From: Crinalium epipsammum PCC 9333
GTDB taxonomy: Bacteria > Cyanobacteriota > Cyanobacteriia > Cyanobacteriales > PCC-9333
DNA: 53,213 bases
Assembly (NCBI RefSeq): GCF_000317495.1
Contig: NC_019734.1
Coordinates: forward strand, 1 to 53,213
Direction: 5' to 3'
Shown here: piece by piece, positions 9,256 to 48,003 of the stretch
How positions within the stretch are numbered: the stretch's first letter is position 1
Layout of the letters: each line of letters opens with the position of its first letter
Notes under the pieces: model-generated
Database searches by the model: none
The model's input: only the letters and a program-made list of their open reading frames with translations
Told to the model about the DNA's origin: nothing
Translations under genes and position numbers: made by a program

Positions 9256-9279
9256 TGTTAAAACCTCGTAAATTTCTAT

Positions 9280-9968: not shown

Positions 9969-10841
9969 TTATTTATAGTTTTTTATTAGAATTTCATCTA
10001 CTTTACCTCTTTTAGAACTATTTGAATTGATAGCTCTAATAGCAGATATTTTTGTTTGATTGTAATTACTGTACAACTCTAAGATGAAGTTTGTGTAAGC
10101 ATTACTAAGTAAAACATTGCATCCTCTAGAACTTAGGTCATCAAATGTTTTTTTCAATCTTATTTGTTCTTCTTTCCCAAAGCCACTGCTGTCGTAGCTA
10201 GTAAAGTCAGCGCTATCCGAAATTGGATCATATGGAGGATCAAAATATAAAAAGTCTCCCTCCTTCGCATCTTTAACAGCTTCTTGAAAATCTACATTTA
10301 ATATTTCTATTTGATTCTGGTTTAAATATCTATTTACTGCTTTCAAAGTCTCTATATCTAAAATGTTTGGATTCTTATACCTACCAAAAGGTACATTAAA
10401 TTGACCTTGAGAATTAACTCTAAATAAACCATTGTAACAAGTTTTATTTAAAAAGACAATTCTTGAGGCCCGTTGGACTAAATTCTTGTGTTTATAATCT
10501 TTATTTCGATCCCATTCCCTAATAGCATAAAAATAGTTTTTTTCATTTTCATGCCTTTTTAGATCATCAATGAGTTCGTCTACTGAATCTCTAATTACTT
10601 TATAACAATTGATCAACTCTGTATTAATATCATTAATAACAGCTTTTTTAGGTTGTAATGAAAAAAGAAGTGCTCCTCCACCTACGAAGGGTTCATAGTA
10701 TGAATTGTAATTAATATCGTATTTTTTAGGGAGGTAGCTTGATACCAATGCTGGAATTAATTGCCTTTTTCCTCCTGCCCACTTTAAAAATGGTTTTAAT
10801 TGCTTATTTACTGCGTTCATTATATTGCCAAAAATTGTCAT
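9969..10841 (-). CDS. D12-class DNA N6-adenine methyltransferase (Dam/DpnM type)
   Basis: A 290-residue enzyme with the SAM-binding motif FLKWAGGKRQL (about residues 18-28), EPFVGGGALLF (about 48-58) and the catalytic motif YFDPPYDP (about 198-205), in the order of alpha-class (D12, Dam/MboI-type) adenine methyltransferases. GATC is the common target of the class, but specificity is not proved by sequence. It is very AT-rich compared with the operon downstream, which suggests recent acquisition. It sits between a winged-helix protein gene and the truncated protease and may be the modification half of a restriction-like module. An internal ATG (residue 8) is an alternative start. Confidence 0.9.
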   Translation of the reverse strand: MTIFGNIMNAVNKQLKPFLKWAGGKRQLIPALVSSYLPKKYDINYNSYYEPFVGGGALLFSLQPKKAVINDINTELINCYKVIRDSVDELIDDLKRHENEKNYFYAIREWDRNKDYKHKNLVQRASRIVFLNKTCYNGLFRVNSQGQFNVPFGRYKNPNILDIETLKAVNRYLNQNQIEILNVDFQEAVKDAKEGDFLYFDPPYDPISDSADFTSYDSSGFGKEEQIRLKKTFDDLSSRGCNVLLSNAYTNFILELYSNYNQTKISAIRAINSNSSKRGKVDEILIKNYK

Positions 10842-21720: not shown

Positions 21721-22235
21721 GTCTAACTATTAGTTTTTATGATCTGGAACAAGAAGAACAATTCTATCTTTTACGGCGTTTTTTAGCTCCAGGCATTGTC
21801 GAGATTAATTCTAAGACTGGTTGCCATGAGTTACAAAAGTACTTAGATGTTAAGGGGTATGGGCGTTTACAAGCTTGGCATGATGGCACTAAAAAAAGCC
21901 TGAAACTGCACAGGTTAGCTTTTGAGTTTTTCAATGAAACGAAAATACCTAGTAACTTAGCTATCCTACATAACTGCGACAATCGTAAATGTGTTAATCC
22001 TGCTCACCTATCTACAGGAACTCTGGCAGAAAATATAAAAGATTGTGTTGCAAAAGGAAGAAACTCAAAAGGCTCTAGGAACGGAAACAACAAGCTTAAC
22101 GAAGCTCAAGTAACAGCAATAAAAAGGCTTTTAGACGGTGGAATGAGCAGGGTTAAAATAGCAAAATTATATGGTGTTTACGATACTACGATTGGGAACA
22201 TAGCAAGAGGTAGAACTTGGAGGCACGTAGCATGA
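21708..22235 (+). CDS. HNH endonuclease with C-terminal HTH (homing-type)
   Basis: A 175-residue protein. The HNH core is in the middle: KLHRLAFEFF, then LAILHNCDNRKCVNPAHL, which supplies the H, N and H residues and a CxxxxCxNPxH zinc-like knuckle, as in HNH_3 homing-type nucleases. The C-terminus (KLNEAQVTAIKRLLDGGMS...) is a helix-turn-helix of the kind that guides such enzymes to DNA. It is embedded between two membrane-protein genes, overlapping both, so it could be a free-standing homing gene or a working part of the operon. Confidence 0.8.
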   Translation: MDTVSLTISFYDLEQEEQFYLLRRFLAPGIVEINSKTGCHELQKYLDVKGYGRLQAWHDGTKKSLKLHRLAFEFFNETKIPSNLAILHNCDNRKCVNPAHLSTGTLAENIKDCVAKGRNSKGSRNGNNKLNEAQVTAIKRLLDGGMSRVKIAKLYGVYDTTIGNIARGRTWRHVA

Positions 22236-22900
22236 TAAAAATATCGTCGCCTCAAGATCAACTCCGAAGCAATAGAAACTTACTCGCTTTAGTTGGTGGC
22301 TCATCAACTGTAATAGGGCTGTTGCTTTGGTCATCTAGCCCATTTCTGTTCCCCAATCCCAAAGATAAATTTAGCGTTTCACTGCGTTATCTTTCCTTGT
22401 TTATTACTAGCTGTTGCGGTGTTACAGCCGTTGCAACAGGGCATCAGTTACAGCGCATTACACCACTTTTGAAAGCAATAGAACAGGCAGAAAAAGCAGA
22501 CTTTATCAGTCAGTTAGCCACTTCGCAATGGGTACAGGAACAACGGTATCAATCAGAAGCCGTTACAGCGTTACAACCCTCGCAACAGCAACCCGTTACA
22601 CTGCAACAGTCAAATAGTTATAACGAGCGTAACGACGGTACAGCAAGGGATAACGAAGTTACTAACGAACCTGTAACGGATTCTCTAACGACTGCAACAG
22701 CCAATGCTGTAACACCTGCAACAGACGAGGAAATGGAAGGTTATAGACCTACTTATCTAGCTGTAACGGCACTGCAACAGCAAGGGATTAGCGACAGCGA
22801 GATTATCAAGGATGTACTGAAACAGGGCGGAACAAATTACTCCAAAGGTAAACAGATGCTAGACGCACTTTTGCAGTTGGGACAGTCTAAAGGTTGGTAG
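22232..22900 (+). CDS. Two-span membrane protein with Gln/Thr-rich linker and C-terminal helical domain
   Basis: A 222-residue protein from ATG 22232 (ATGA overlap with the HNH gene; TTGGAGG upstream). Two hydrophobic segments (about residues 20-40, ALVGGSSTVIGLLLW; and 55-75, LFITSCCGVTAVATG) form a membrane hairpin. A long polar linker rich in VTALQ/QQQ repeats follows, encoded by many GCAACAG and GTAACG units. The C-terminal 55 residues look folded (GISDSEIIKDVLKQGG, KGKQMLDALL), resembling a small UBA/winged domain. Last gene of the operon; a strong terminator follows. Confidence 0.55.
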   Translation: MIKISSPQDQLRSNRNLLALVGGSSTVIGLLLWSSSPFLFPNPKDKFSVSLRYLSLFITSCCGVTAVATGHQLQRITPLLKAIEQAEKADFISQLATSQWVQEQRYQSEAVTALQPSQQQPVTLQQSNSYNERNDGTARDNEVTNEPVTDSLTTATANAVTPATDEEMEGYRPTYLAVTALQQQGISDSEIIKDVLKQGGTNYSKGKQMLDALLQLGQSKGW

Positions 22901-23086: not shown

Positions 23087-23255
23087 AACTGCCGTACTAT
23101 TGCCAACTGTTTATAGTAACTAAAACTTATTAATTATTAAAAATGTTTGTACTATTGAAAACTTGTTTATAATACTAAAAACTGTTTGTAGTAGTTAAAA
23201 CTGTTTGTAGTAACGAAAAGTTATTAAAATAGTGAAAGCTGTATGAATACTGATT
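23087..23255. repeat. Nine near-tandem 18-20 bp iterons
   Basis: Units resembling AACTGTTTGTAGTANTNAA begin at about 23087, 23105, 23124, 23142, 23160, 23180, 23199, 23218 and 23237. Spacing is 18-20 bp, about two helical turns, so a bound protein would lie on one face. The units are degenerate and contiguous, without unique spacers, so this is not a CRISPR. Iteron arrays of this period are typical of plasmid origins and of partition or regulatory sites. No gene lies between 22901 and 23380. Confidence 0.7.
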
Positions 23256-24337: not shown

Positions 24338-24416
24338 AAGCCTTACTTCAAGGGAGATTTAACTTGGCGTTGAGCCGAGATACGTGTAAAAAAGTGCAAT
24401 ATAAAAGCGCAAAGCC

Positions 24417-24884
24417 TTAACCAGCAGTGGTTTTAGCTTTATAAGAACACCCACAAAAAGGACAGAAGCGAAATTTCATTGATGAGATGGGTTCAGAGCA
24501 GCTAGGACAACGATTGATCAGTTGAAAACCACAAAAGCAACAAAATTTAGCACGGGCATGAGTCCAAAGTGGATCGGGAGCAGTACCGGGAGTCCAGCAG
24601 TGTGGACAAAATTTTAATTCTGTAGTTGCAGCAAGTGGTAATCCCTTACTCACAGCATCAAGATACTCAACTGGGGTTTGCAAAGCCAATGCCAACCCAT
24701 TGAGAGTTTTATAATTTAACCGCGAAGTTAGACCTCGTTCAATTTTTCCCAAACTTTGCAAATGAATTCCAGCCTTCAGCGCAACTTCGTGTTGGCTCAA
24801 CCCTAAACTAGCACGCACTCGTTGCACAAAACTAGCTAAGGTTTCTTGTTCTTGGGGCAAATTAGTATGTTCTGAAATCGACAT
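24417..24884 (-). CDS. XRE-type HTH protein with double zinc ribbons (transposon passenger)
   Basis: A 155-residue protein. Residues about 14-72 are an XRE HTH (VRASLGLSQHEVALKAGIHL ... LGKIERGL). The C-terminus has four CxxC knuckles (CPHC, CCFC, CPSC, CPFC), forming two zinc ribbons. It is divergent from the recombinase gene, with the probable recombination site between, so it may control recombinase expression. Its stop codon lies in the terminal inverted repeat. An identical gene is in copy 2. Confidence 0.8.
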   Translation of the reverse strand: MSISEHTNLPQEQETLASFVQRVRASLGLSQHEVALKAGIHLQSLGKIERGLTSRLNYKTLNGLALALQTPVEYLDAVSKGLPLAATTELKFCPHCWTPGTAPDPLWTHARAKFCCFCGFQLINRCPSCSEPISSMKFRFCPFCGCSYKAKTTAG

Positions 24885-24931
24885 AAAAATGTGTTTTAAT
24901 TAACTGTTGGTTCTACGTCAATCTTTTAAAG

Positions 24932-24950
24932 TTAATAAATCGTTTATTAA
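24932..24950. promoter_or_regulatory. Putative recombinase core site of the transposon
   Basis: TTAATAAA-TCG-TTTATTAA is a perfect inverted repeat between the divergent HTH and recombinase genes; a related half-site (AATTAACTG) lies upstream. Tyrosine recombinases such as TnpI bind such paired arms in their internal resolution site. The 3-base centre is shorter than usual, so the functional core may be offset. Repeated at 39339-39357 in copy 2. Confidence 0.5.
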
Positions 24951-24965
24951 AATAATTTCCACCAA

Positions 24966-25865
24966 GTGTCTGTATCTTTAGCTACAGTAACTACTCAATT
25001 TTTAGAAAGACAGGGATTAGCCCCAAACACTATTCGCTCTTACGAAGGAACATTAATACCTTTATTGCAAGAATATGGGCGAATGCCTGTAGAAATTCTC
25101 AGCCGAAAGGCACTAACTGAATATTTAGATAGCTTAGATAATTTAGCCTATACTACCCATCATCGACATCAAGCAATTATTCAAGCTTTATTCAATTTCG
25201 CTGTTGAACAAGGTTACATTAAAGTTAATCCTATCGCTCGGCTGCGACGGCGAAAACCTGATCCGAAAAAAGGCGAACATTTAGCCGATGAAGTAATTCG
25301 TTATCTCACCGTTACTCAAATTCAATTACTGTATCAGGTAGTGGCATCCGATAGCCGAATGCGTGCATTGGTAAAACTCCTACACCGCAGTGGAGCTAGG
25401 ATTGGAGAAGTTTTAGCCCTCAACCTTACTGACATAGATTTGAGCAATCACAAATTCTACGTGGTTGGTAAAGGTAATAAGTCACGTTGGTGTTTTTATA
25501 GTGAAGATGCTCAAGTAGCTTTAGAACATTATTTGCGTTATTATCGCCACAAAAGCTCTATATCGGCATTATTTACCGCTCAACATCCTTGTAGTTATAA
25601 AGTTACCCGTTTAAGCTATCGTACCGTTCATAAAAACTGGGCTGAATTAATTAAACCTGTACCAGAGCTAGCTGGTATACGTCTGCATGATTTACGACAT
25701 ACATTTGCTACAGAACGAGTAGGATTAATGGGAATTGAAGAACTAAGAGCTTTGATGGGACACGCCAATATCCAGACAACATTACGTTACCAAAAAGTGA
25801 CATCAGCCCGGTCAGAATATGTAGCGAAACAAGCACTTAATTATTTAATCAACAATAATATTTAA
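24966..25865 (+). CDS. TnpI-like tyrosine recombinase
   Basis: A 299-residue integrase-family protein starting at GTG 24966. The N-terminal SAM-like domain contains TIRSYEGTLIPLLQEYG. The catalytic domain has Arg in RSGARIGEVLAL (about residue 138), the HxxR box HDLRHTFATERV (about 239), LMGHANIQTTLRY with the second His and the nucleophilic Tyr. In TnpI-bearing Tn3-family elements this enzyme resolves the cointegrate made by replicative transposition. It lies directly upstream of the transposase gene. Confidence 0.85.
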   Translation: MSVSLATVTTQFLERQGLAPNTIRSYEGTLIPLLQEYGRMPVEILSRKALTEYLDSLDNLAYTTHHRHQAIIQALFNFAVEQGYIKVNPIARLRRRKPDPKKGEHLADEVIRYLTVTQIQLLYQVVASDSRMRALVKLLHRSGARIGEVLALNLTDIDLSNHKFYVVGKGNKSRWCFYSEDAQVALEHYLRYYRHKSSISALFTAQHPCSYKVTRLSYRTVHKNWAELIKPVPELAGIRLHDLRHTFATERVGLMGIEELRALMGHANIQTTLRYQKVTSARSEYVAKQALNYLINNNI

Positions 25866-25984
25866 TTGTTAATTTGGACAAAAAGAGCGCGAGTTTTTCC
25901 GGTGATTTTCTGGGTAATTGAGTAGAAATGCTGAGTAGATATTATACTCTGTACTAGCTGAGTGAGAGTTGGAGACTATCCCCC

Positions 25985-28355
25985 ATTACATCAATTGAGC
26001 GTACTGCTTATCCACAGTTCAAACCTTTACCTTCGGCTAAGGAACTGGCGGAACTGTATACCCCAACAACAGAAGAAATTAAGTTTGTGCGCTCTAATGT
26101 ACGAACACCAACAGGATTGCTGGCACTGATGGTAATGCTGAAATCGTTTCAACGATTGGGTTATTTCACAGACATAGAATCAGTTCCGACGGCTATCATT
26201 GCTCATTTGCGGAAATGCCTCAATCTCAGCGTTAAGGTATCGGCTATTCCTTCAGTTCGCTCAAAACGTTATTATCAACAAGCGATTAGGACTTACTTGG
26301 GTGTCAAGCCTTATGATCGAACCGCGGGAACAGCATTTAACCCAGACACAATCTCTATTAGGAGTGTTGGCAGAAATTTTAACAGCCTCCGATGAAACTC
26401 CTGATGCGATGACTTTAGGAAGTCAAGTCCAGTCGGTTTTACAGGTTCATGGTGGTACAGCTTTACTATTGCAGCAGTGCGAAGAGATTACTGCTTACAA
26501 CAGTCATAATTACTTACCTTTGTTATGGCGATTCTATAGCCGCTACCGTAAGCTGTTATTCGAGTTAGTTAGGTCGTTAGATATTCGCTCTACTTCTGCC
26601 GATGAATCTGTGATTGATGCAATGGCTTTTGTACTTGAACAGGAACACCGTCGTGCCAAGTGGTTGCCTGCGACTATTGATTTGAGTTTTATCAACGATG
26701 CTTGGCGACGATTGGTGGTAACGAAACAAGGAGATACAGAAGTCCTAGTCCGAACTCAGCTAGAAATTTGCTTGTTTGTGCATTTGGCTTCTGAGTTGAA
26801 GACTGGCGATGCTTGCGTAGTGGGGTCGGAAAATTATGCAGATTTCCGAGAACAACTTTTACCTTGGTCTGAATGTTCTTCTCTGGTGGAAGAATACTGT
26901 CAGTCGTTGGAAATTCCCGCCGATAGTGTTCAATTTGTGGAATATCTTCAACAAAAGTTGACGCTCCTGGCTCGTGAAGTAGACCAAATTTGTTCTAATA
27001 GTGACCAGATAACAATTAACAGGGAGGGAGAACCTGTACTCAAGCGGCTTGTAACTCAACCCCAATCTGAAGAGGCTTTCCAATTAGAATCAGCTATTTT
27101 ACAACGATTGCCGGAACGCAGTTTATTGGATATTTTATGCAATGTCGAGCATTGGTTACATTGGACTCGCCATTTTGGCCCGATATCGGGGTCGGAAGCG
27201 AAATTAACTCAAGCAGGCACACGTTATATCCTGACGACTTTTGGCTATGGTTGCAATTTGGGGCCTAACCAAACGGCTCGTCACTGCCGAGGCGGAATTA
27301 CCAGCCATATGCTGTCTTACATTCACCGTCGTCATATCACTGCTGATAAGTTGCAAGCAGCAATCAGGGATATGATCAATGCTTATAATCAACTGCAATT
27401 GCCTTCTTGTTGGGGAACAGGACAACGAGCGGCGGCGGACGGTAGTAAGTTTGAGATTTACGAGAACAATTTGTTAAGCGAGTACCACATTCGCTATGGC
27501 GGTTATGGTGGGATTGCTTATCATCATGTTTCGGATACTTACATCGCGCTGTTCACCCACTTTATTAATTGTGGCGTTTGGGAAGCAGTTTATATCTTAG
27601 ATGGATTGCTCAAAAATACCTCAGATATTCAGCCCTCAACTCTGCACGCTGATACTCAGGGACAATCGGCTCCGGTGTTTGCTCTCTCCTATCTGTTAGG
27701 AATTAAGTTAATGCCGCGTATCCGTAACTGGCAGGACTATACTTTCTTACGCCCTAGTTCACAAGATGTTTATGAGTATATTGACCCATTGTTCAAAGGG
27801 GTAGTGGATTGGAAGCTAATTCACACCCACTGGCAAGATTTGATGCGTGTGGTGTTGTCGATTAAGGCGGGTAAACTGATGCCATCGACTATTTTACGCA
27901 AATTGGGCAGTTACAGTCGCAAAAATCGTCTTTATCAGGCTTTTCGCTGTTTGGGACAGGTGATTCGCACAATGTTTTTGTTGGAATATATTTCAGATTG
28001 CGGGCTACGTCAGGAGATTACTGCCTGTACCAATAAGGTAGAAAGTTATCACGGTTTTTTAGACTGGCTATTTTTTGGTAAGGATGGGGTGATTACGGAG
28101 AATGATCCTAGCGAGCAGGAAAAGCGGGTTAAGTATCTTGACTTAGTAGCGAGTGCGGTAATTCTCCAGAATGCTGTGGATATTTCGCAGATTGTGCAGC
28201 AGTTAAGTGCTGAAGGGTACAAGATTAACCGGGATTTGTTAGCAAGTTTGAGTCCTTATTTGACTAGGCAGATCAAACGTTATGGGGATTATGTGGTGGA
28301 TTTGCAGAACGTTCCGCCGTCTTGGGAGCAAGCTATTGTTTTGCCAATTGAATAA
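25985..28355 (+). pseudogene. tnpA: Tn3-family transposase gene, frameshifted and lacking a standard start
   Basis: Homology begins at ITSIERTAYPQFKP with ATT (25985) where relatives, as I remember them, have ATG. The first frame runs to ...LGVKPYDRTA; the rest lies in the +1 frame from about 26326. Removing one G from GGG (26326-26328) would restore PYDRTAEQHLTQ and give about 790 residues. The catalytic triad is intact: Asp in AAADGSKFE, Asp in LHADTQGQS and Glu in KVESYHGFLDW. Copy 2 has the same frameshift, so the lesion predates duplication or is tolerated through frameshifting. Confidence 0.8.
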
Positions 28356-28461
28356 AATTTCTGAAATTCATAACTGACAAGGCTTTGCGCTTCTATCTTG
28401 CACTTTTTTACACGTATCTTGGCTCAACGCCGAAGTGCTATGTACGGACTTTCACCGTGAT

Positions 28462-29468: not shown

Positions 29469-29901
29469 AGGAGGTGAAGCATAACAACCCCTAAAACTGA
29501 AAATACCCCTGCTTTTAACAAGGGTTTTTCAAGGGCATATAGATTTTTTTTTAATCGAGCCAGATAAACATTTCCCCGCCTTGCTATCGGTGCGAGTTGT
29601 CCAGACACCACCGTAGCAATTGAAAAGTGCGGGAAAGAGTGTCTTGTCTTCTATTATCCATGAAGATCCTTTGAGTTGTACCCCCAAAATTAAATTTTTT
29701 TTAAATTTTTTTCAGAAATAAATGACAGATGAGTCAATTCAAAATCTTTAGTTGACAAGCAAAGCTCTCTTTCCCCCACTACATGGGTTTGAGTGCTACC
29801 TAAAAGTTACCGGAAGTAAGCCACAACTATATATATAGGTGGTAGTGAGCCCTCAAACCCTGTCAGGCGGTATCCACAACTCGCTATACAGGGAAAGAGC
29901 C
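29469..29901. other. 433-bp leader of the second replication gene, no gene seen
   Basis: It contains a weak hairpin with a T tract (about 29500-29530), an AT-rich run around 29690-29715, a TTGACA hexamer at 29752-29757 that could be a -35 box, and ATATATATAGG near 29830. No frame has both a start and coding-like composition. It may contain promoter and origin elements for the primase-helicase gene. Confidence 0.35.
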
Positions 29902-32900
29902 ATGTCATACGAACATTCCGACGCGACACACACCTTCGATATCCGTAACTTCTCTTCAGTCCTGCAACCTGCCAAAAAAGGTTGCTACATCTGCCCGAAC
30001 TGCAACGAGCCAAAACTCACCTTTTCCAATAATGGTAAGTATAACTGCTGGCACTGTAACGACACCAAACAGATCGCTCGCATCTTAACCGAACCAGAAC
30101 GAGAAGAACGTCATCGCCAGCGAGAGGAAGCCAACCGACTCCAATCTACCCTTACACATGACGAACGTAAACAAGAGTGGATAGAGTTTAGCGGTATATC
30201 CGAAAGTATCGCAAGTGCCAACCTACGACACACTAGCGACTCGCCAGAGATAGTAGCACAATTGCTCGGTTGGAAATATTACAAAGGTACTACAGGCTGG
30301 TACGTCCTCTCCTGCGACCCCCTTACAGGCAAGCGGAGTAATAACGGACAATTTAAACCAGATGAACCGATTGATTTTCCTGATTCTGAACCAGCCAAAT
30401 ACATCAGCTTCCCCAAAAAATCCCAATCAAACAAAGGGATAGAAGCTATTTATCTAGCACTAACTTTAAACGACTGGATCAAAATTAGCGATCGCACAGG
30501 CATTCCCTTCACAGAAGACGACATTGACAACACGCGAGATGACCTCGGATTTTGGGCATGGGTACGGAACAATCCCGAAATTCCCATCATTATCACCGAA
30601 GGCATCAAGAAAGCAGCTTGCCTGTTAGGTCATGGCTGGGTAGCCATCTGCCTTGCTGGAGTAACTTGTGGACAACGAAGCGGCAAGAAACTACTCGAAT
30701 CCCTAACTGAATTTATCGTACCTGGTCGCCCAGTATTTTTAGCATTTGACGCAGACATCGTAGAGAAAACCCCAGTACGTCGCGCCCTCATTCAGTTGTG
30801 CCAACTAATCAAACGAACTGACAAAACCTCAATCACTCGCATTATCCAGTGGGATTTAGCACTTGGTAAAGGCTGCGATGACTTAATTGTAAATCACAAA
30901 GTTGAAGCTTTTGAAACTGCAATGGATGAAGCCATATCCTACTCACAATGGATCAAGGAAATTAATACCCAATATCAAGAATCATATACAGGCTCATCCA
31001 ATGGAGGCGGTAACAATAACAATAACAACGGTAATAGTGGAGGTGATAACAATAACAACGGTAATAGTGGAGGCGGTAACGGTGGCGACAACTCAGACTT
31101 TAGTTCTGACGACCACAACCAGAAACAAAACAACCGCGAATGGCGCTACGAACGCATTTGTAAATCATTAGGACTACCGTTTGAACACTGCGTCACTGCT
31201 GGCACCTTTGATGGCTATGTTTACCGAACTTGTTTTGAAGCGGGAGAAAAAGATTGGAAAACAATTGATACCGCCTTCTACCGCTACACAGGGCTAGGTT
31301 ACTGGCAGAATCAGCCAGATAAGCTGCTCCATAAAATTATTACTGATGCTGGGGATAGGGCATTCAAATTAAAACTAAGTAAAGAAGAAGGTTGGGTTGA
31401 CTCACACCCCTACGAAACCAACAATCATGCCGAGTCAGCCTTTAAATATTGTCGCAAGCGATTAGAACCCATAGAGCCATTACCCACTAACGGGCATCTG
31501 CGGGCGTTTCGTAACTGTACAGTAGATATGCGAACAGGGGAAACCATGCCCCACAGCCCAGAATACTACCTCACTTCCGGCATTTCCTACGATTATTATC
31601 CCAACCGCCCCTGCCCATCCGTTTTTTACCAATTCTTGTGCGATGCCTACGGAGAAGACTTGATCCCCGTCATCCGAGCATTTACTTCCATGTTCCTTGA
31701 CCCCACAGCCCCTTACGGCGTATTCCCCCACCTGCTAGGTCAATCTGGCAGCGGTAAAGGAACCTTGGGACGATTGTGGAACAGTTTGTATGGAGACGAT
31801 GGTTCAGGCAGTGGTGTCTTCTCTGACATTGCCACACCGGAAGGGCGACATCAATATCTTACTGGAAAAACAATTTTCGGTATTCCCGACATTGGCGGTT
31901 ATGTTACTGGATTACGGGCTTTCTACGAACTGGTAGACAATGGCGAGTTAACTGGACGAGCGTTATTCAACCCAACTGGCTACCAAAAAAGTTTCAACTG
32001 CCGCTTCTGGGTTGGCTCAGTAGATCATCTCCAGATCGAAAATGCTGGCGATGGCTGGGAGCGTCGCGCTTATCCCATACCAACTCAAGGCAAACCTAGC
32101 AAAGTTGACCCAGAGTTAAGACAGAAACTAGAAGCAGTCAAAGCTGACATCATCTCTTGGGCTTTAGCAATGCCGCGTTCAGAACGCGATGTTATCCTGC
32201 TTACTCCACCCACCAATCACCGCATTGTTAATTTAAAGCACGACGCTGCCCTCTATGGTGACTCAGTGAAATCTTTTGTGGATCTGTGCCTACGACCCAC
32301 AGAAGAACAAACCATTATGCCTACCCATTTGCTGCACAGCTTATACACAGCTTATTGCCAAGCTCACGGTTATGTTGCTTCTGGGATGTCCAAGTTTATT
32401 TCGCACTTTAAGAATGTTTTAACTAAAAACTTCGTAGACCGTCGCTGGGGAGCCATGAAAAATGGCTTGCGCCGGATGCAACCAGCCCACTTTACAAATA
32501 TGGAGATTCTCCCAGGAACCTTTGTAGATATTGCGTCCGACTTTCAATCGTCTAACGGTTATCAAACGGACTCTAAAGGAAGCCACGAACCAGAGTGGAA
32601 GTGTCTCAAATCCCACTGCGTTGAAGGCGGGTTGATGGAGTTTGAGGATTTCTGGAATCCCCAGCCACCTGATGATGATCCTGGTACTGATGGTGGCGGC
32701 GGTAGCCCCATTCCTCCTCCATTTTCCCCTGATGGTGGAAATATGGATCAGGGTGGATCAGGGTCTACTCAAAATTCTGAATCTACCCCGATCCACCCTC
32801 AAACAACGGAAAATCAAGCTTCTAGAGATGTGGATCAGGGTGGATCAGGTGGATCAGGGTTACTTTTGAGCCATGAAAAAAGTTTTGACGAGATCCAAAA

Positions 32901-33462
32901 ACAAACTGAAAATAGTCAATCTCTATCCTCACCCCTGATCCACCCTGATCCAGTGGCTCAAGTTACGGAAAATCAATGTGTTCAGGGTAGTCAATCAAAA
33001 CAGCCGCCGGAACTATCCCCTGCTCTCAAGGAGGTTTCTGAATTACTAATGCTTGTAGAAACTGGCTCTGATTTAAAAGCAGTAACGCAGATAGCAGCAG
33101 AAAAAGGTCTACCTGACAATTGGAAAAAAATAGTTTGGTCTCATTTAGATAAAAATACTCAAGCCAAGATTAAACGTCTGAAGCAACAACAACTTCCAAC
33201 TACGGAAGCGCCCGCGTCCACTGTTTTATCAGCACCATCAGCAATTAAAATCGAGCAAAAATCCTTGCCACCTTTCCCTTCTGTTGATGATTTAGTTTGG
33301 CGCAAACCTACCCCTAGATATCCTGAAGCTCAAATATGCCGCATTGTTCAAATCACTTCTGGTGGTGCCTATACCGATAACAAGTGGCACATAAGTCACT
33401 ATGCCTGGGAAAAAGGCGATTACCTGCCGTATTCTGCCGACAGTAATGATTGCGAATATTAG
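29902..33462 (+). CDS. Plasmid/phage-type primase-helicase (DUF3854 plus P4-like helicase)
   Basis: A 1186-residue protein from ATG 29902 (GGGAAAGAG upstream; an in-frame GTG at 29839 is less likely). A zinc finger (CPNC...CWHC, about residues 30-55) leads into a DUF3854/TOPRIM-like domain with PIIITEGIKKAA (about 230) and FLAFDAD (about 280). A Gly/Asn linker (about 367-400) separates a superfamily 3-type helicase with P-loop GQSGSGKGTLG (about 613) and FGIPDIGG (about 660). The C-terminal 250 residues are low complexity and contain iteron-like DNA. It is a second replication module, distinct from the CyRepA1 gene, and lies between the two transposon copies. Confidence 0.8.
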   Translation: MSYEHSDATHTFDIRNFSSVLQPAKKGCYICPNCNEPKLTFSNNGKYNCWHCNDTKQIARILTEPEREERHRQREEANRLQSTLTHDERKQEWIEFSGISESIASANLRHTSDSPEIVAQLLGWKYYKGTTGWYVLSCDPLTGKRSNNGQFKPDEPIDFPDSEPAKYISFPKKSQSNKGIEAIYLALTLNDWIKISDRTGIPFTEDDIDNTRDDLGFWAWVRNNPEIPIIITEGIKKAACLLGHGWVAICLAGVTCGQRSGKKLLESLTEFIVPGRPVFLAFDADIVEKTPVRRALIQLCQLIKRTDKTSITRIIQWDLALGKGCDDLIVNHKVEAFETAMDEAISYSQWIKEINTQYQESYTGSSNGGGNNNNNNGNSGGDNNNNGNSGGGNGGDNSDFSSDDHNQKQNNREWRYERICKSLGLPFEHCVTAGTFDGYVYRTCFEAGEKDWKTIDTAFYRYTGLGYWQNQPDKLLHKIITDAGDRAFKLKLSKEEGWVDSHPYETNNHAESAFKYCRKRLEPIEPLPTNGHLRAFRNCTVDMRTGETMPHSPEYYLTSGISYDYYPNRPCPSVFYQFLCDAYGEDLIPVIRAFTSMFLDPTAPYGVFPHLLGQSGSGKGTLGRLWNSLYGDDGSGSGVFSDIATPEGRHQYLTGKTIFGIPDIGGYVTGLRAFYELVDNGELTGRALFNPTGYQKSFNCRFWVGSVDHLQIENAGDGWERRAYPIPTQGKPSKVDPELRQKLEAVKADIISWALAMPRSERDVILLTPPTNHRIVNLKHDAALYGDSVKSFVDLCLRPTEEQTIMPTHLLHSLYTAYCQAHGYVASGMSKFISHFKNVLTKNFVDRRWGAMKNGLRRMQPAHFTNMEILPGTFVDIASDFQSSNGYQTDSKGSHEPEWKCLKSHCVEGGLMEFEDFWNPQPPDDDPGTDGGGGSPIPPPFSPDGGNMDQGGSGSTQNSESTPIHPQTTENQASRDVDQGGSGGSGLLLSHEKSFDEIQKQTENSQSLSSPLIHPDPVAQVTENQCVQGSQSKQPPELSPALKEVSELLMLVETGSDLKAVTQIAAEKGLPDNWKKIVWSHLDKNTQAKIKRLKQQQLPTTEAPASTVLSAPSAIKIEQKSLPPFPSVDDLVWRKPTPRYPEAQICRIVQITSGGAYTDNKWHISHYAWEKGDYLPYSADSNDCEY
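32744..32955. repeat. GGATCAGG iterons inside the primase-helicase gene
   Basis: TGGATCAGG occurs at about 32744, 32754, 32831, 32841 and 32850 in direct orientation, and CCTGATCCA twice around 32935-32952 in inverted orientation. A related CGATCCACC is near 32799. The direct copies encode DQGGSG and the inverted ones IHPDP. Spacing is about 10 bp within clusters. Each holds a GATC, the usual target of Dam-class methylases such as the one at 9969. Origins inside an initiator gene are known (for example lambda O). Confidence 0.7.
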
Positions 33463-33722: not shown

Positions 33723-34130
33723 TTATGGTTCTGCTTCCCAATCTTCTATATTTAATTCTTTAATTCGCTGAAATTCAGACACATTATGGGTAACTAATGT
33801 TAAGTTATTGGCTATAGCTATCGCGGCTATTTGTAAATCATAAACTCCTATAGGGGTTCCTTTATTTTTTAACTCAGCGCGAATTTGCCCAGCTATTTTA
33901 GCTGCTTTAATATCTAAATTTATTGTAGTAAACTGATTGAATAAACGCTCTAACTTGGCTAAATTTTGTTCTCTCCGACTGCTACAATAAGCTCCATAGT
34001 ACAATTCAAATTGTACTACTGTACATAAATAAATATCTTTTGGTTCTTGTTGCGCTAATCTTTGTACAGCTAAAGAACTGGTATTATTGAGTAGCTTGAT
34101 ACAAACATTAGTATCTAATAAATAACTCAT
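33723..34130 (-). CDS. vapC: VapC-type PIN-domain toxin
   Basis: A 135-residue PIN-domain ribonuclease: the first acidic residue is in SYLLDTNVCIKLL, the second in VVQFELYYGAY (Glu), then GVYDLQIAAIAIANN (Asp) and LVTHNVSEFQRI in place of the usual T(N/D)xxxF turn. These residues hold Mg2+ in VapC toxins, which cut tRNA or rRNA when free of antitoxin. Its ATG overlaps the antitoxin stop (ATGA), the normal VapBC arrangement. Confidence 0.9.
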   Translation of the reverse strand: MSYLLDTNVCIKLLNNTSSLAVQRLAQQEPKDIYLCTVVQFELYYGAYCSSRREQNLAKLERLFNQFTTINLDIKAAKIAGQIRAELKNKGTPIGVYDLQIAAIAIANNLTLVTHNVSEFQRIKELNIEDWEAEP

Positions 34131-35858: not shown

Positions 35859-35934
35859 GGCGTTGAGCCAAGATACGTGTAAAAAAGTGCAAGATAGAAG
35901 CGCAAAGCCTTGTCAGTTATGAATTTCAGAAATT

Positions 35935-38304
35935 TTATTCAATTGGCAAAACAATAGCTTGCTCCCAAGACGGCGGAACGTTCTGCAAATCCACCACATA
36001 ATCCCCATAACGTTTGATCTGCCTAGTCAAATAAGGACTCAAACTTGCTAACAAATCCCGGTTAATCTTGTACCCTTCAGCACTTAACTGCTGCACAATC
36101 TGCGAAATATCCACAGCATTCTGGAGAATTACCGCACTCGCTACTAAGTCAAGATACTTAACCCGCTTTTCCTGCTCGCTAGGATCATTCTCCGTAATCA
36201 CCCCATCCTTACCAAAAAATAGCCAGTCTAAAAAACCGTGATAACTTTCTACCTTATTGGTACAGGCAGTAATCTCCTGACGTAGCCCGCAATCTGAAAT
36301 ATATTCCAACAAAAACATTGTGCGAATCACCTGTCCCAAACAGCGAAAAGCCTGATAAAGACGATTTTGCGACTGTAACTGCCCAATTTGCGTAAAATAG
36401 TCGATGGCATCAGTTTACCCGCCTTAATCGACAACACCACACGCATCAAATCTTGCCAGTGGGTGTGAATTAGCTTCCAATCCACTACCCCTTTGAACAA
36501 TGGGTCAATATACTCATAAACATCTTGTGAACTAGGGCGTAAGAAAGTATAGTCCTGCCAGTTACGGATACGCGGCATTAACTTAATTCCTAACAGATAG
36601 GAGAGAGCAAACACCGGAGCCGATTGTCCCTGAGTATCAGCGTGCAGAGTTGAGGGCTGAATATCTGAGGTATTTTTGAGCAATCCATCTAAGATATAAA
36701 CTGCTTCCCAAACGCCACAATTAATAAAGTGGGTGAACAGCGCGATGTAAGTATCCGAAACATGATGATAAGCAATCCCACCATAACCGCCATAGCGAAT
36801 GTGGTACTCGCTTAACAAATTGTTCTCGTAAATCTCAAACTTACTACCGTCCGCCGCCGCTCGTTGTCCTGTTCCCCAACAAGAAGGCAATTGCAGTTGA
36901 TTATAAGCATTGATCATATCCCTGATTGCTGCTTGCAACTTATCAGCAGTGATATGACGACGGTGAATGTAAGACAGCATATGGCTGGTAATTCCGCCTC
37001 GGCAGTGACGAGCCGTTTGGTTAGGCCCCAAATTGCAACCATAGCCAAAAGTCGTCAGGATATAACGTGTGCCTGCTTGAGTTAATTTCGCTTCCGACCC
37101 CGATATCGGGCCAAAATGGCGAGTCCAATGTAACCAATGCTCGACATTGCATAAAATATCCAATAAACTGCGTTCCGGCAATCGTTGTAAAATAGCTGAT
37201 TCTAATTGGAAAGCCTCTTCAGATTGGGGTTGAGTTACAAGCCGCTTGAGTACAGGTTCTCCCTCCCTGTTAATTGTTATCTGGTCACTATTAGAACAAA
37301 TTTGGTCTACTTCACGAGCCAGGAGCGTCAACTTTTGTTGAAGATATTCCACAAATTGAACACTATCGGCGGGAATTTCCAACGACTGACAGTATTCTTC
37401 CACCAGAGAAGAACATTCAGACCAAGGTAAAAGTTGTTCTCGGAAATCTGCATAATTTTCCGACCCCACTACGCAAGCATCGCCAGTCTTCAACTCAGAA
37501 GCCAAATGCACAAACAAGCAAATTTCTAGCTGAGTTCGGACTAGGACTTCTGTATCTCCTTGTTTCGTTACCACCAATCGTCGCCAAGCATCGTTGATAA
37601 AACTCAAATCAATAGTCGCAGGCAACCACTTGGCACGACGGTGTTCCTGTTCAAGTACAAAAGCCATTGCATCAATCACAGATTCATCGGCAGAAGTAGA
37701 GCGAATATCTAACGACCTAACTAACTCGAATAACAGCTTACGGTAGCGGCTATAGAATCGCCATAACAAAGGTAAGTAATTATGACTGTTGTAAGCAGTA
37801 ATCTCTTCGCACTGCTGCAATAGTAAAGCTGTACCACCATGAACCTGTAAAACCGACTGGACTTGACTTCCTAAAGTCATCGCATCAGGAGTTTCATCGG
37901 AGGCTGTTAAAATTTCTGCCAACACTCCTAATAGAGATTGTGTCTGGGTTAAATGCTGTTCCCGCGGTTCGATCATAAGGCTTGACACCCAAGTAAGTCC
38001 TAATCGCTTGTTGATAATAACGTTTTGAGCGAACTGAAGGAATAGCCGATACCTTAACGCTGAGATTGAGGCATTTCCGCAAATGAGCAATGATAGCCGT
38101 CGGAACTGATTCTATGTCTGTGAAATAACCCAATCGTTGAAACGATTTCAGCATTACCATCAGTGCCAGCAATCCTGTTGGTGTTCGTACATTAGAGCGC
38201 ACAAACTTAATTTCTTCTGTTGTTGGGGTATACAGTTCCGCCAGTTCCTTAGCCGAAGGTAAAGGTTTGAACTGTGGATAAGCAGTACGCTCAATTGATG
38301 TAAT
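35935..38304 (-). pseudogene. tnpA: Transposase gene of copy 2, two frameshifts
   Basis: It shares with copy 1 the non-ATG beginning and the extra G near 37961-37963, and has in addition a one-base deletion at 36365-36368 that separates the last 134 residues, including the segment with the catalytic Glu (KVESYHGF). It is therefore more damaged than copy 1 and unlikely to make active transposase. The near-identity of the rest shows recent duplication. Confidence 0.85.
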
Positions 38305-38423
38305 GGGGGATAGTCTCCAACTCTCACTCAGCTAGTACAGAGTATAATATCTACTCAGCATTTCTACTCAATTACCCAGAAAATCACCGGAAAAACTCGC
38401 GCTCTTTTTGTCCAAATTAACAA

Positions 38424-39323
38424 TTAAATATTATTGTTGATTAAATAATTAAGTGCTTGTTTCGCTACATATTCTGACCGGGCTGATGTCACTTTTTGGT
38501 AACGTAATGTTGTCTGGATATTGGCGTGTCCCATCAAAGCTCTTAGTTCTTCAATTCCCATTAATCCTACTCGTTCTGTAGCAAATGTATGTCGTAAATC
38601 ATGCAGACGTATACCAGCTAGCTCTGGTACAGGTTTAATTAATTCAGCCCAGTTTTTATGAACGGTACGATAGCTTAAACGGGTAACTTTATAACTACAA
38701 GGATGTTGAGCGGTAAATAATGCCGATATAGAGCTTTTGTGGCGATAATAACGCAAATAATGTTCTAAAGCTACTTGAGCATCTTCACTATAAAAACACC
38801 AACGTGACTTATTACCTTTACCAACCACGTAGAATTTGTGATTGCTCAAATCTATGTCAGTAAGGTTGAGGGCTAAAACTTCTCCAATCCTAGCTCCACT
38901 GCGGTGTAGGAGTTTTACCAATGCACGCATTCGGCTATCGGATGCCACTACCTGATACAGTAATTGAATTTGAGTAACGGTGAGATAACGAATTACTTCA
39001 TCGGCTAAATGTTCGCCTTTTTTCGGATCAGGTTTTCGCCGTCGCAGCCGAGCGATAGGATTAACTTTAATGTAACCTTGTTCAACAGCGAAATTGAATA
39101 AAGCTTGAATAATTGCTTGATGTCGATGATGGGTAGTATAGGCTAAATTATCTAAGCTATCTAAATATTCAGTTAGTGCCTTTCGGCTGAGAATTTCTAC
39201 AGGCATTCGCCCATATTCTTGCAATAAAGGTATTAATGTTCCTTCGTAAGAGCGAATAGTGTTTGGGGCTAATCCCTGTCTTTCTAAAAATTGAGTAGTT
39301 ACTGTAGCTAAAGATACAGACAC
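38424..39323 (-). CDS. TnpI-like tyrosine recombinase, copy 2
   Basis: Identical in translation (299 residues) to the recombinase of copy 1, with the same catalytic boxes (GARIGEVLAL, HDLRHTFATE, LMGHANIQTTLRY) and the same GTG start. With its own site at 39339-39357 and that of copy 1 at 24932-24950 in inverse orientation, this enzyme or its twin could invert the 14.4 kb between the two sites, which includes the primase-helicase gene and VapBC. That possibility is inference. Confidence 0.85.
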   Translation of the reverse strand: MSVSLATVTTQFLERQGLAPNTIRSYEGTLIPLLQEYGRMPVEILSRKALTEYLDSLDNLAYTTHHRHQAIIQALFNFAVEQGYIKVNPIARLRRRKPDPKKGEHLADEVIRYLTVTQIQLLYQVVASDSRMRALVKLLHRSGARIGEVLALNLTDIDLSNHKFYVVGKGNKSRWCFYSEDAQVALEHYLRYYRHKSSISALFTAQHPCSYKVTRLSYRTVHKNWAELIKPVPELAGIRLHDLRHTFATERVGLMGIEELRALMGHANIQTTLRYQKVTSARSEYVAKQALNYLINNNI

Positions 39324-39338
39324 TTGGTGGAAATTATT

Positions 39339-39357
39339 TTAATAAACGATTTATTAA
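39339..39357. promoter_or_regulatory. Putative recombinase core site, copy 2
   Basis: The inverted repeat TTAATAAA-CGA-TTTATTAA lies between the divergent recombinase and HTH genes, the counterpart of the site at 24932-24950. Confidence 0.5.
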
Positions 39358-39404
39358 CTTTAAAAGATTGACGTAGAACCAACAGTTAATTAAAACACAT
39401 TTTT

Positions 39405-39872
39405 ATGTCGATTTCAGAACATACTAATTTGCCCCAAGAACAAGAAACCTTAGCTAGTTTTGTGCAACGAGTGCGTGCTAGTTTAGGGTTGAGCCAACAC
39501 GAAGTTGCGCTGAAGGCTGGAATTCATTTGCAAAGTTTGGGAAAAATTGAACGAGGTCTAACTTCGCGGTTAAATTATAAAACTCTCAATGGGTTGGCAT
39601 TGGCTTTGCAAACCCCAGTTGAGTATCTTGATGCTGTGAGTAAGGGATTACCACTTGCTGCAACTACAGAATTAAAATTTTGTCCACACTGCTGGACTCC
39701 CGGTACTGCTCCCGATCCACTTTGGACTCATGCCCGTGCTAAATTTTGTTGCTTTTGTGGTTTTCAACTGATCAATCGTTGTCCTAGCTGCTCTGAACCC
39801 ATCTCATCAATGAAATTTCGCTTCTGTCCTTTTTGTGGGTGTTCTTATAAAGCTAAAACCACTGCTGGTTAA
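39405..39872 (+). CDS. XRE-type HTH protein with zinc ribbons, copy 2
   Basis: Identical in translation (155 residues) to the gene at 24417-24884: an XRE HTH followed by two zinc ribbons (CPHC, CCFC, CPSC, CPFC). It is divergent from the recombinase gene and ends inside the right terminal repeat of transposon copy 2. Confidence 0.8.
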   Translation: MSISEHTNLPQEQETLASFVQRVRASLGLSQHEVALKAGIHLQSLGKIERGLTSRLNYKTLNGLALALQTPVEYLDAVSKGLPLAATTELKFCPHCWTPGTAPDPLWTHARAKFCCFCGFQLINRCPSCSEPISSMKFRFCPFCGCSYKAKTTAG

Positions 39873-39923
39873 GGCTTTGCGCTTTTATATTGCACTTTTT
39901 TACACGTATCTCGGCTCAACGCC

Positions 39924-40010: not shown

Positions 40011-40364
40011 ATAATAGGTAAAGGCTGAAACCTAAACAGGGCAAAGGCTTCAACTACTGGTTGCCCCTGGTTGCACGAACCTTCTATTTACGCCAATCGC
40101 AATTATCGGGAAAAAACATTCTTTTAATCCTCTAGAACTGTGGAGCGATAGCAATAACGTAACATCCGAATAACAATCGTTTCCAAAAGATCTTCCCTTG
40201 CCGTTAAGATACATCATCTGTATCATTACAGGGGTTAGCTTGGACTGAATTCACAAATCTAGACCCTGCCAACGATAGTGACGGAACACATAGAGATAAC
40301 AGACATAATCAGGGAAATGCTTTCCCGACATGGAATCAATGAAAATTATTAGAGGATAATAATT

Positions 40365-42707: not shown

Positions 42708-42813
42708 AGTAGACCCATCTTAAGTAGTGTTGCTGCATAACCTTTTAGTACGCTTGTCAGACTAAGACTTTCCTACTTTCTTGCAAAAACAATGGATAAG
42801 TGTTATCTGTAAA

Positions 42814-42874
42814 ACCAGATAACCATAAACCTTGTTAACCAAATTACCAGATAACCAGCAAACCAGATTACCAG
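42814..42874. repeat. ACCAGATAACCAG repeats upstream of parA (candidate parS)
   Basis: ACCAGATAACCA at 42814, ACCAGATAACCAG at 42846-42858 and ACCAGATTACCAG at 42862-42874 directly precede the parA ATG; an inverted TTATCTG at 42803 adds a hairpin. The same 13-mer recurs inside the downstream RHH gene (43538 and 43634). The position fits a centromere that also acts as the operator of the par operon. Confidence 0.65.
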
Positions 42875-43477
42875 ATGAAGATTTTAACTGTCACTGGATA
42901 CAAAGGCGGTATATCGAAATCGACAACTGCCATACACATTGCGACATTCTTCAGCGATATTGGGAAAACCATTCTGGTAGACTCTGACCCAAATCGCACT
43001 GCCCTAGCATGGTCGAGTCGGGGGAGCCTTCCTTTTACTGTGGCTGATGAGCGACAAGCAATGAAGTTGATTTCGGGTAATGATTTTGTAGTGATTGACA
43101 CTCCAGCCCGACCAGACTCAAGTGACTTAAAAGAGTTGGCAAAAGGTTGTGACTTACTCATCTTGCCAACGATTCCAGATGTCGTGAGTTTGGAACCGAT
43201 GTTAAAAACGGCAAGCGATTTAGGTGCAGCAAACTACAGAGCTTTACTGGTAATAGTTCCTCCATCACCTAGTAAAGAAGGAGCAGCAATACGCTCCGAA
43301 CTTATAGATAACGGTATTCCTGTTTTCAAGACGATGATTCGCCGCGCTGCTGGATTTCAAAAAGCTGCTTTTGAAGGTGTCCCTATTAGAGACGTTTCTT
43401 CCTCAAAAGCAAGGGTTGCATGGTTAGATTATCTAGCACTTGGCAAGGAAATTATGGAGGTTTTAGGAAATGACTAA
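42875..43477 (+). CDS. parA: ParA-type partition ATPase (small, type Ib)
   Basis: A 200-residue ParA/MinD-type ATPase with deviant Walker A GYKGGISKSTTA (about residues 8-19), where the usual glycine before the second lysine is serine, then ILVDSDPNRTA (about 34-44) and FVVIDTPARPD (Walker B, about 71-81). It lacks an N-terminal HTH, so it is the short type that relies on a separate DNA-binding partner for repression. It overlaps that partner gene by 8 bp, and parS-like repeats lie directly upstream. Confidence 0.85.
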   Translation: MKILTVTGYKGGISKSTTAIHIATFFSDIGKTILVDSDPNRTALAWSSRGSLPFTVADERQAMKLISGNDFVVIDTPARPDSSDLKELAKGCDLLILPTIPDVVSLEPMLKTASDLGAANYRALLVIVPPSPSKEGAAIRSELIDNGIPVFKTMIRRAAGFQKAAFEGVPIRDVSSSKARVAWLDYLALGKEIMEVLGND

Positions 43478-43793
43478 TTCTAAATATGGGGATTTGATTC
43501 GCAAAGCGAGAGAAACAGATAGCCAAGAAGTTTCTGAACCAGATAACCAGATTACTAGCCGGCCTGTAGAGCAAACCGAGGGTGATCCAGAAAACCAGAA
43601 TGCCATCAAACAAGAGAATCAGTTAGCAGTAAAACCAGATAACCAGAATGAGCGAGAACGAGAAGTCAACCTTTGTGTAAAAGTGCCTGAATCACTTAGA
43701 CGACATTGGGCAGCAGAATCTAAGCGGCACGGAATAACAATGACGGAAGTAATAATTCAGGCTCTTAAAGAGCGTTTCGGTTCGCCCAATTGA
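43470..43793 (+). CDS. ParB/ParG-like ribbon-helix-helix partner of ParA
   Basis: A 107-residue protein overlapping parA by 8 bp. The C-terminal 45 residues are an RHH fold (NLCVKVPESLRRHW, GITMTEVIIQALKERF). The N-terminal 60 residues are a charged, probably disordered arm with recurrent PDNQ/PENQ motifs, which in ParG-like proteins contacts ParA and modulates DNA binding. The DNA encoding PDNQ repeats the 13-mer ACCAGATAACCAG found upstream of parA. Partition and autorepression are the likely roles. Confidence 0.75.
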   Translation: MTNSKYGDLIRKARETDSQEVSEPDNQITSRPVEQTEGDPENQNAIKQENQLAVKPDNQNEREREVNLCVKVPESLRRHWAAESKRHGITMTEVIIQALKERFGSPN

Positions 43794-47124: not shown

Positions 47125-48003
47125 TTAGAATTTTTTCAATATAGGTATTGCTCCTTGTGAAATGTCTTCCAATTTTATTGCCACTATACCTTCATTGAAA
47201 GCTCTCTGATAAACATTTTGGCTGGCTGAAGTTTTGTAACCCAACCCATCATAAAAACCTTGAGAAAAGGCGATCGCTGCTTTGTCTTGGATTGAATTGT
47301 TCATGCCAATTACATAATTAATATGCTGCTTAATCGCTTCAGCAGATTGTTCTGAGTAACAGGCATTAAGCAGAACACATTTAACACAATCAGTATGTGA
47401 TTCAAATAGCGATGCTAAACCTTGCGGTGTAACTAGCTTATTGTTCCCCCCATCATCCTCTAATAGCAAGCTACCATCTTTCTCCCCATGTCCACAAAAG
47501 TGAACTATTTGAGGTTGTTCCTCTGCGATCGCCCTCCGAATATCCTGGGGGCGTACAGCAGTTCTGACTTTAATTTCAAATAAATCTCGATTAGTAGCTC
47601 GTCGTATAGCTTCTTCAATTTCTCTAATCTCTTTATCTAAACGCAGACCGTGGGGAATTGCTGCTAAAATCAGAATTTTTTGTCCTTGATTACTTGGTTT
47701 TTGAGAAATGTTAGAAGGGGTTTCTGGTTCGTGATTTGACAATAGGGTTTCAGCGATAGCTTTCAATGTTGGATTTCCAGGGTTTGAATCACACGCAGCA
47801 CGAACTAAATCTTCAACCCATCCCTGAGAATTAGCGGTTTGTATTAATTTAAAGACAATATCTTGTAAACTCCCTTCGCAAGCAATAACTCTTAATTTTT
47901 TATCTAATTCAAATGTCAACATTTGCTCTAAGGATGCTGTGCTAGGAAAAGCATCAATTAAAGCTTCTTGTAATTTTTTACGCTGCTGACCAGATAAATT
48001 CAT
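47125..48003 (-). CDS. EAD1-CHAT caspase-like protease
   Basis: A 292-residue protein. Residues 1-85 are an EAD1 domain (LQEALIDAFPSTASLEQML, IQTANSQGWVEDLV, NPGNPTLKAIAE). After a linker, residues about 108-280 are a CHAT/caspase-like domain with the catalytic His in QIVHFCGHGEKDGSLL (about residue 170) and the catalytic Cys in CVLLNACYSEQSAEAI (about 214). It is an effector protease recruited through EAD1. The adjacent gene upstream carries a very similar EAD1 joined to a NACHT NTPase, which suggests a sensor-effector pair. Confidence 0.9.
   Translation of the reverse strand: MNLSGQQRKKLQEALIDAFPSTASLEQMLTFELDKKLRVIACEGSLQDIVFKLIQTANSQGWVEDLVRAACDSNPGNPTLKAIAETLLSNHEPETPSNISQKPSNQGQKILILAAIPHGLRLDKEIREIEEAIRRATNRDLFEIKVRTAVRPQDIRRAIAEEQPQIVHFCGHGEKDGSLLLEDDGGNNKLVTPQGLASLFESHTDCVKCVLLNACYSEQSAEAIKQHINYVIGMNNSIQDKAAIAFSQGFYDGLGYKTSASQNVYQRAFNEGIVAIKLEDISQGAIPILKKF

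What the first reader, a model, noticed from the sequence alone, without database searches (positions are those of the whole stretch)
32744..32955. GATC-containing iterons inside the primase-helicase gene
At least seven copies of TGGATCAGG, five direct and two inverted, cluster in about 210 bp that encode a low-complexity tail. Origins embedded in initiator genes are known (lambda O). Each copy has a GATC site, so methylation by a Dam-type enzyme, such as that on this plasmid, could control initiation, as at oriC or P1.
Basis: partly seen in the sequence, partly recalled or inferred. Interest (0 to 1): 0.65.

Follow-up and report, generated by a model that had tools for sequence, protein, structure and literature searches.

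The report
Probable replication origin inside rep gene
A cyanobacterial plasmid seems to keep its replication start site inside the gene for its own replication protein, and related plasmids keep such a site at the same place but spelled with different repeat words, so the DNA and not the protein stretch is what is preserved.

Summary
In detail: seven exact TGGATCAGG (five direct, two inverted) and one 1-mismatch copy lie at 32744-32952, inside a primase-helicase gene (29839-33462). The assembly holds 48 copies, 7 of them here. No 9-mer reached seven copies in 2000 protein-preserving codon shuffles, and the copies span four strand/frame classes, so this is a DNA element. Of 28 homologous loci, 22 carry an array in the same coding stretch just 3' of the helicase (one runs past the stop codon), 3 carry one downstream of the gene, and in 3 none was found. 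The word differs by clade. In ten close homologues third codon positions differ at 9/1830 comparisons inside the words and 764/7064 in the rest of the linker. In 18 of 23 arrays, two sets of opposite majority orientation flank a core with less GC than the gene, the layout published for phage-inducible chromosomal islands. Best reading: the plasmid's origin, bound by the same Rep, taken into its coding sequence. Dam control is not supported: 19 of 23 arrays have no GATC in the word, the nearest relative shows no second Dam-family gene, and SeqA was not found. Binding and replication were not tested.

The parts
29839..33462 (+). rep: primase-helicase gene (DUF3854, D5_N, Pox_D5-like C-terminal domain), 1207 codons as listed; the true start may be a later ATG
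29983..30057 (+). zinc-finger-like cysteines (C49, C52, C55, C70, C73), read by eye
   Evidence: sequence; no family hit
30550..30906 (+). DUF3854 (suggested to be Toprim-related in PMC10079941, passages)
31273..31644 (+). D5_N domain, N-terminal part of the SF3-type helicase
32260..32481 (+). Pox_D5-like domain, the candidate iteron-binding domain (inferred)
   Evidence: E 1e-5, 26.3 bits, cut-off 21.4; structure predictions failed
32744..32752 (+). iteron 1 TGGATCAGG (left set)
32754..32762 (+). iteron 2 TGGATCAGG (left set)
32787..32795 (-). iteron 3 TGGATCGGG (left set, inverted, 1 mismatch)
   Evidence: reads TGGATCAGG in the relative L047
32831..32839 (+). iteron 4 TGGATCAGG (left set)
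32841..32849 (+). iteron 5 TGGATCAGG (left set)
32850..32858 (+). iteron 6 TGGATCAGG (left set)
32859..32933 (.). AT-richer core between the two iteron sets, candidate melting site, GC 0.35
32934..32942 (-). iteron 7 TGGATCAGG (right set)
32944..32952 (-). iteron 8 TGGATCAGG (right set)
9969..10841 (-).

Best explanation
The array is the replication origin of this 53-kb plasmid, lying in the linker-coding part of its own rep gene. The Rep is a P4-alpha/SaPI-like primase-helicase. Its C-terminal domain binds the TGGATCAGG iterons; copies load on the two opposed sets, the AT-richer 75-bp core melts, the helicase unwinds in both directions and the DUF3854 part primes. Shown by sequence: the repeats, the constraint on the DNA, the conserved place and layout in relatives, and the helicase family. 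Inferred: binding by this Rep, melting, bidirectional loading, priming.
For: (1) DNA-level constraint: 7 copies against at most 4 in 2000 synonymous shuffles, four strand/frame classes. In ten close homologues third codon positions differ at 9 of 1830 pairwise comparisons inside the words and 764 of 7064 in the rest of the linker. Window against L047: third positions 0 of 24 in iterons, 28 of 246 elsewhere in the tail. (2) Same place: 22 of 28 loci have an array in the coding stretch just 3' of the helicase. 21 of these 22 could be tested by synonymous shuffles and each passes with at least one word: 19 at 0 of 200 (L005 and L112 only at k=8), L010 and L101 at 0 of 300 with the word TGGACA taken from the other loci. 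L116 has a broken frame and was not tested. (3) The array is not tied to the peptide: in L112 it runs past the stop codon; in L114, L119 and L120 it lies downstream of the gene, in L114 between annotated genes. (4) Layout: in 18 of 23 rows sets of opposite majority orientation flank a core with less GC than the gene. (5) Words follow the helicase tree. (6) Published precedents, passages read: PICI origins (PMC6092414), SaPI Rep and SCCmec Cch2 (PMC7581432), P4 alpha (PMC4234260), lambda O (PMC4488673). A profile of 20 homologues hits PDB 7ola_A 'DNA primase' at E 2.6e-10.
Against: No binding, replication or origin mapping. L109, L117 and L118 have the helicase and no array was found. Five of 23 rows do not show the layout: L101, L110, L111 (no opposed sets or no low-GC core) and L102, L104 (largest gap elsewhere). 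No null was run for the layout, and gaps between GC-rich words tend to be lower in GC anyway. The shuffle test has false positives: MobV and, in L004, the 8-mer CTCACCAA outside the tail (0 of 200). L111's own iteron word TGATCAGG is reached by 1 of 300 shuffles; its 0-of-200 word is ACCCCGA. L112's coding copies share one strand/frame class. The window core is only moderately AT-rich, and AT-richer DNA lies at about 33.6-34.8 kb. The right set has two copies. The cumulative GC-skew minimum is at 40273, about 7.4 kb away. The C-terminal domain rests on one modest Pfam match; both AlphaFold models failed (pLDDT 37 and 39). Ten rows are close relatives, so independent clades are fewer than 22.
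Confidence: 0.75

Rival explanations
1. The array is bound by Rep but serves copy-number or incompatibility control, or repression of rep, while the start site lies elsewhere (for example in the AT-rich region after the gene).
For: Iterons often do both (general knowledge). The core is only mildly AT-rich and AT-richer DNA lies at 33.6-34.8 kb.
Against: Opposed sets around a core, as in published PICI origins. No second array of this word on the contig, and the exact copies lie about 2.9-3.1 kb into the gene, not near its start.
Confidence: 0.13
2. The array is a partition or transfer site (centromere-like or oriT-related) that happens to lie in rep.
For: Iterated short words also mark centromeres (general knowledge); two relatives carry ParM-type genes near rep.
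Against: A ParA-like gene at 42875-43477 has its own AACCAGAT repeats on both sides. The array goes with the helicase gene on plasmids with different neighbours.
Confidence: 0.05
3. Low-complexity linker: the repeats are a by-product of a repetitive peptide.
For: The linker peptide is Gly/Ser/Gln-rich.
Against: Copies in four strand/frame classes and excess over 2000 synonymous shuffles; third positions nearly frozen inside the words only; arrays outside the rep coding sequence in relatives.
Confidence: 0.02
4. Origin as in the best explanation, with initiation timed by Dam methylation of the GATC in each iteron.
For: Every iteron here has GATC; Dam-family genes on this contig and on C6. A separate clade (L110, L111) also has GATC iterons.
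Against: In 19 of 23 arrays the word has no GATC. All nine relatives searched have D12 methylases, five of them with GATC-free arrays (G124, G387, G326, G382, G280). The nearest relative has a single D12 match, on another contig. No SeqA match.
Confidence: 0.08

Closest known systems
PICI/SaPI pri-rep-ori replicon (PMC6092414 and PMC7581432, passages read)
   Same: Primase and D5-type helicase initiator; short iterons just 3' of the helicase; two sets flanking an AT-rich region; in SaPI Rep and Cch2 the C-terminal domain recognises the origin.
   Different: Here the origin is inside the rep coding sequence, on a cyanobacterial plasmid with a MobV relaxase gene. No convincing terminase small subunit was seen among the ORFs searched (one partial match, E 0.004, in an HNH-endonuclease ORF); not all ORFs were searched.
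Phage P4 alpha protein with its origin repeats (PMC4234260 passages; iteron spelling only recalled)
   Same: One protein with primase, helicase and a C-terminal DNA-binding part; repeats at the origin.
   Different: P4 repeats lie outside the alpha gene (recalled); P4 has a Toprim primase, here DUF3854, which has only been suggested to be Toprim-related.
Phage lambda ori inside gene O (PMC4488673 passages)
   Same: Iterons plus AT-rich segment inside the initiator's coding sequence.
   Different: Four 19-bp repeats with AT-rich DNA on one side; O recruits the helicase and is not one itself; unrelated protein (recalled).
CyRepA1/CyRepA2 cyanobacterial Rep proteins (PMC10079941, PMC9978351, PMC10899382, passages)
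   Same: Cyanobacterial plasmids; DUF3854 near the N-terminus.
   Different: CyRepA proteins are described with a DEXDc domain, not a D5 helicase; the word iteron occurs in none of the three main texts.

Membership tests
PICI-type pri-rep-ori replicon | D5-type initiator helicase with primase | tested here: met
   D5_N 53.5 bits (cut-off 22.4), DUF3854 116.8 bits (cut-off 23) in one protein; TIGR01613 matched below its cut-off (54 of 108.7). Primase activity of DUF3854 not shown.
PICI-type pri-rep-ori replicon | Two iteron sets flanking an AT-rich region | tested here: met
   the core is only moderately AT-rich in the window (GC 0.35)
PICI-type pri-rep-ori replicon | Origin immediately 3' of the rep gene | tested here: not met
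   3' of the helicase domain but inside the gene; in relatives L114, L119, L120 the array is downstream of the gene (0.9 kb, 1.6 kb, 54 bp)
PICI (the element) | Integrase/excisionase, phage induction, phage interference, packaging | tested here: inconclusive
   Contig has MobV, ParA-like, tyrosine-recombinase and Tn3 genes; no convincing terS; not all ORFs searched; induction and packaging not testable
P4 alpha-like proteins | C-terminal winged-helix origin-binding domain | tested here: inconclusive
   Pox_D5 match E 1e-5; hit to 7ola C-terminal part at E 0.54 only; AlphaFold models unusable
P4 alpha-like proteins | Sequence-specific binding to the iterons | not testable with these tools
   needs gel shift or footprinting
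CyRepA1 family | Family model match and DEXDc helicase domain | tested here: not met
   No CyRepA1 model among NCBIfam hits at E 0.001 (whether this release holds such a model was not checked); D5 domain and no DEXDc hit in Pfam
Intragenic initiator origin (lambda O kind) | Iterons and AT-rich segment inside the initiator coding sequence | tested here: met
   origin function itself not tested
Dam/SeqA-controlled origin | GATC conserved in the origin and a SeqA-type reader | tested here: not met

The most novel reading that the evidence does not exclude
A widespread class of cyanobacterial plasmid replicons uses a PICI-like origin (opposed iteron sets around an AT-rich core) that has been taken into the rep reading frame as a linker, so Rep and its origin are one inseparable stretch of DNA. 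Relatives show possible steps: array downstream, across the stop codon, fully inside. Iteron words changed clade by clade, giving a natural series for Rep-iteron specificity.
Probability: 0.6. Interest if true: 0.72.

Novelty: new variant of a known kind. Interest (0 to 1): 0.62.

Why it matters
The papers on cyanobacterial Rep proteins seen here do not describe iterons. [quoted passage not shown] these plasmids would be a second group. A series of relatives with different words, and with arrays inside, across and outside the gene, allows direct tests of Rep-iteron specificity and of how an origin becomes coding sequence, and could give compatible shuttle vectors.

Tried and rejected
Peptide-repeat explanation: rejected by shuffles, frames and third-position conservation. 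The shuffle test alone is not specific (MobV; CTCACCAA in L004). Partition site: a separate candidate is beside the ParA-like gene. DnaA boxes: 25 matches to TTTTCCACA at up to 1 mismatch against 22.5 expected, the nearest to the array about 1 kb away. GC skew: weak. Viral contigs: 14 stretches matched a pattern, none a relative. Phage records: one remote match. The tree is a quick one of 27 rows with long branches and ten open forks; it is used only to show that words follow clades. The CyRepA1-like region on own contig C7 (33000-40000) showed no 8-mer four or more times within 400 bp; other DUF3854-only matches were not scanned for arrays at their 3' ends.

L116 (broken frame) was left out of the shuffle test and the tree, L107 and L116 out.

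Papers were seen as passages found by terms (PMC10079941, PMC9978351, PMC10899382, PMC4234260, PMC7581432, PMC10516667, PMC6092414, PMC4488673) and, for PMC10899382, the abstract; the rest as search listings. That 7ola is the SaPI5 primase-helicase, and the P4 iteron spelling and place, are recalled.

Full report
What is there. The window is a whole contig of 53213 bases in an assembly of 5.6 Mb in nine contigs. That it is a cyanobacterial plasmid is inferred from its relatives and its MobV, ParA-like and rep genes. The array sits in ORF 29839-33462, which has DUF3854, D5_N and Pox_D5 domains above the Pfam cut-offs and a below-cut-off match to the P4-family primase model. Seven exact TGGATCAGG and one 1-mismatch copy lie at 32744-32952. 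Neighbouring copies are 9 bp apart once and 10 bp apart three times, so they fall in different frames and encode different residues (MDQG, GGSG, VDQG, LIHP, PDP).

Chance. The window holds 22 matches at up to one mismatch against 7.6 expected. The assembly holds 48 exact copies, seven of them within 209 bp. In 2000 synonymous-codon shuffles no 9-mer reached seven copies (mean 2.09, maximum 4). As calibration the test was run on all 23 ORFs of at least 200 aa: besides rep, ORF 22217-22900 and the MobV gene stand out; MobV does so in one strand/frame class, rep in four.

Homologues. The helicase part (residues 430-945) was searched in PLSDB (10 records), phages (1 remote), viral contigs (none), 388 genomes of the order (116 with any match) and 386 of the phylum (32 with any match). 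From these and, 28 loci, the window included, were analysed (choice of rows in Tried and rejected). That is 22 of 28. Three have an array downstream of the gene: L114 TGTCTCAGGG about 0.9 kb after it and between annotated genes, L119 about 1.6 kb after it, L120 54 bp after it. In L109, L117 and L118 none was found. Of the 22, 21 could be tested by synonymous shuffles and each passes with at least one word, but not with all: L005 at k=7 is reached by 6 of 200, L112 at k=7 by 17 of 200, L111's TGATCAGG by 1 of 300, and L010 and L101 pass only with TGGACA, a word taken from the other loci.

Constraint on the DNA. In the ten close homologues, with words marked in one reference at a time, all positions differ at 71 of 5446 comparisons inside the words and 2618 of 21290 in the rest of the linker; third positions at 9 of 1830 and 764 of 7064. 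The comparisons share sequences and are not independent. Between window and L047 the iterons have 2 differences in 72 sites and none in 24 third positions; the rest of the tail has 54 in 738 and 28 in 246. The two differences move the off-consensus base from one copy to another.

Layout. Taking the largest gap between sites (23 rows), the window reads >><>>> | 75 bp, GC 0.35 | <<; L105 <<><< | 112 bp, 0.37 | >><>>; L114 ><>> | 132 bp, 0.24 | <<><; L112 ><>>> | 107 bp, 0.24 | <<><, with the stop codon inside the core; L113 >>>>>> | 87 bp, 0.40 | <<><<. L105 and L114 are exact mirrors in order of orientation. In 18 of 23 rows the two sets have opposite majority orientation and the core has less GC than the gene. 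L101, L110 and L111 do not show this, and L102 and L104 have their largest gap elsewhere. In the window's gene 3% of stretches of that length have GC as low as the core; in L115 19% and in L119 29%. No null was run for the layout.

Mechanism. Published relatives of this kind of initiator: P4 alpha binds origin repeats with a winged helix (PMC4234260); [quoted passage not shown] PICI origins always have two iteron sets flanking an AT-rich region, 3' of the initiator gene (PMC6092414). The same anatomy here, with the reading frame carried through the origin, gives the best explanation. Lambda O shows that an origin can lie inside an initiator gene (PMC4488673).

Dam. A Dam-family gene is at 9969-10841 and another on the chromosome-sized contig C6 (a third, short match on C6 is at E 9e-5). 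The relative G001, with the same GATC array, has one D12 match, on contig C29. SeqA: no match in the own genome, while the positive control E. coli was found. In 19 of 23 arrays the word has no GATC. So methylation control is at most a feature of two clades.

Limits. Everything is sequence evidence. The DNA-binding domain rests on a modest match; both structure predictions failed.

Noticed in passing
window 22232-22900: A second intragenic array: GTTACAG and GCAACAG (together G[CT][AT]ACAG) on both strands in a small ORF that looks like a membrane protein by eye. ORFs 90-94% identical lie on four other contigs of the same genome (C3, C4, C5, C7), where single sites switch between the two words; a 46% copy on C1 has only one such word.
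   Followed up: partly
window 24366-28431 and 35859-39923: Two Tn3-family elements, about 4066 bp, 99.98% identical, inverted, with terminal repeats of about 54-58 bp, flank the rep region; in the second the transposase reads as two ORFs.
   Followed up: partly
window 42813-42876 and 43537-43648: AACCAGAT 8-bp repeats on both sides of a ParA-like gene (42875-43477), a candidate partition site.
   Followed up: partly
window 4901-9915 and 47125-48003: Genes with EAD1, trypsin-like, AAA, CoxE-like VWA, DUF7226 and CHAT domains, resembling a conflict or defence module.
   Followed up: no
window 23105-23213: AT-rich 19-bp tandem repeat (5.8 copies) between ORFs.
   Followed up: no
L111 8179-8662 (coordinates on the reverse complement, as in the script): A second array, word ATACACCA/TGGTGTAT on both strands, downstream of the rep gene of G319.
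   Followed up: no
window 33723-34130: VapC-like PIN-domain gene next to rep.
   Followed up: no
window 513-1793: Actin-like protein, below-cut-off match to FcmB (40.5 bits, cut-off 300), possibly a ParM-type filament gene.
   Followed up: no
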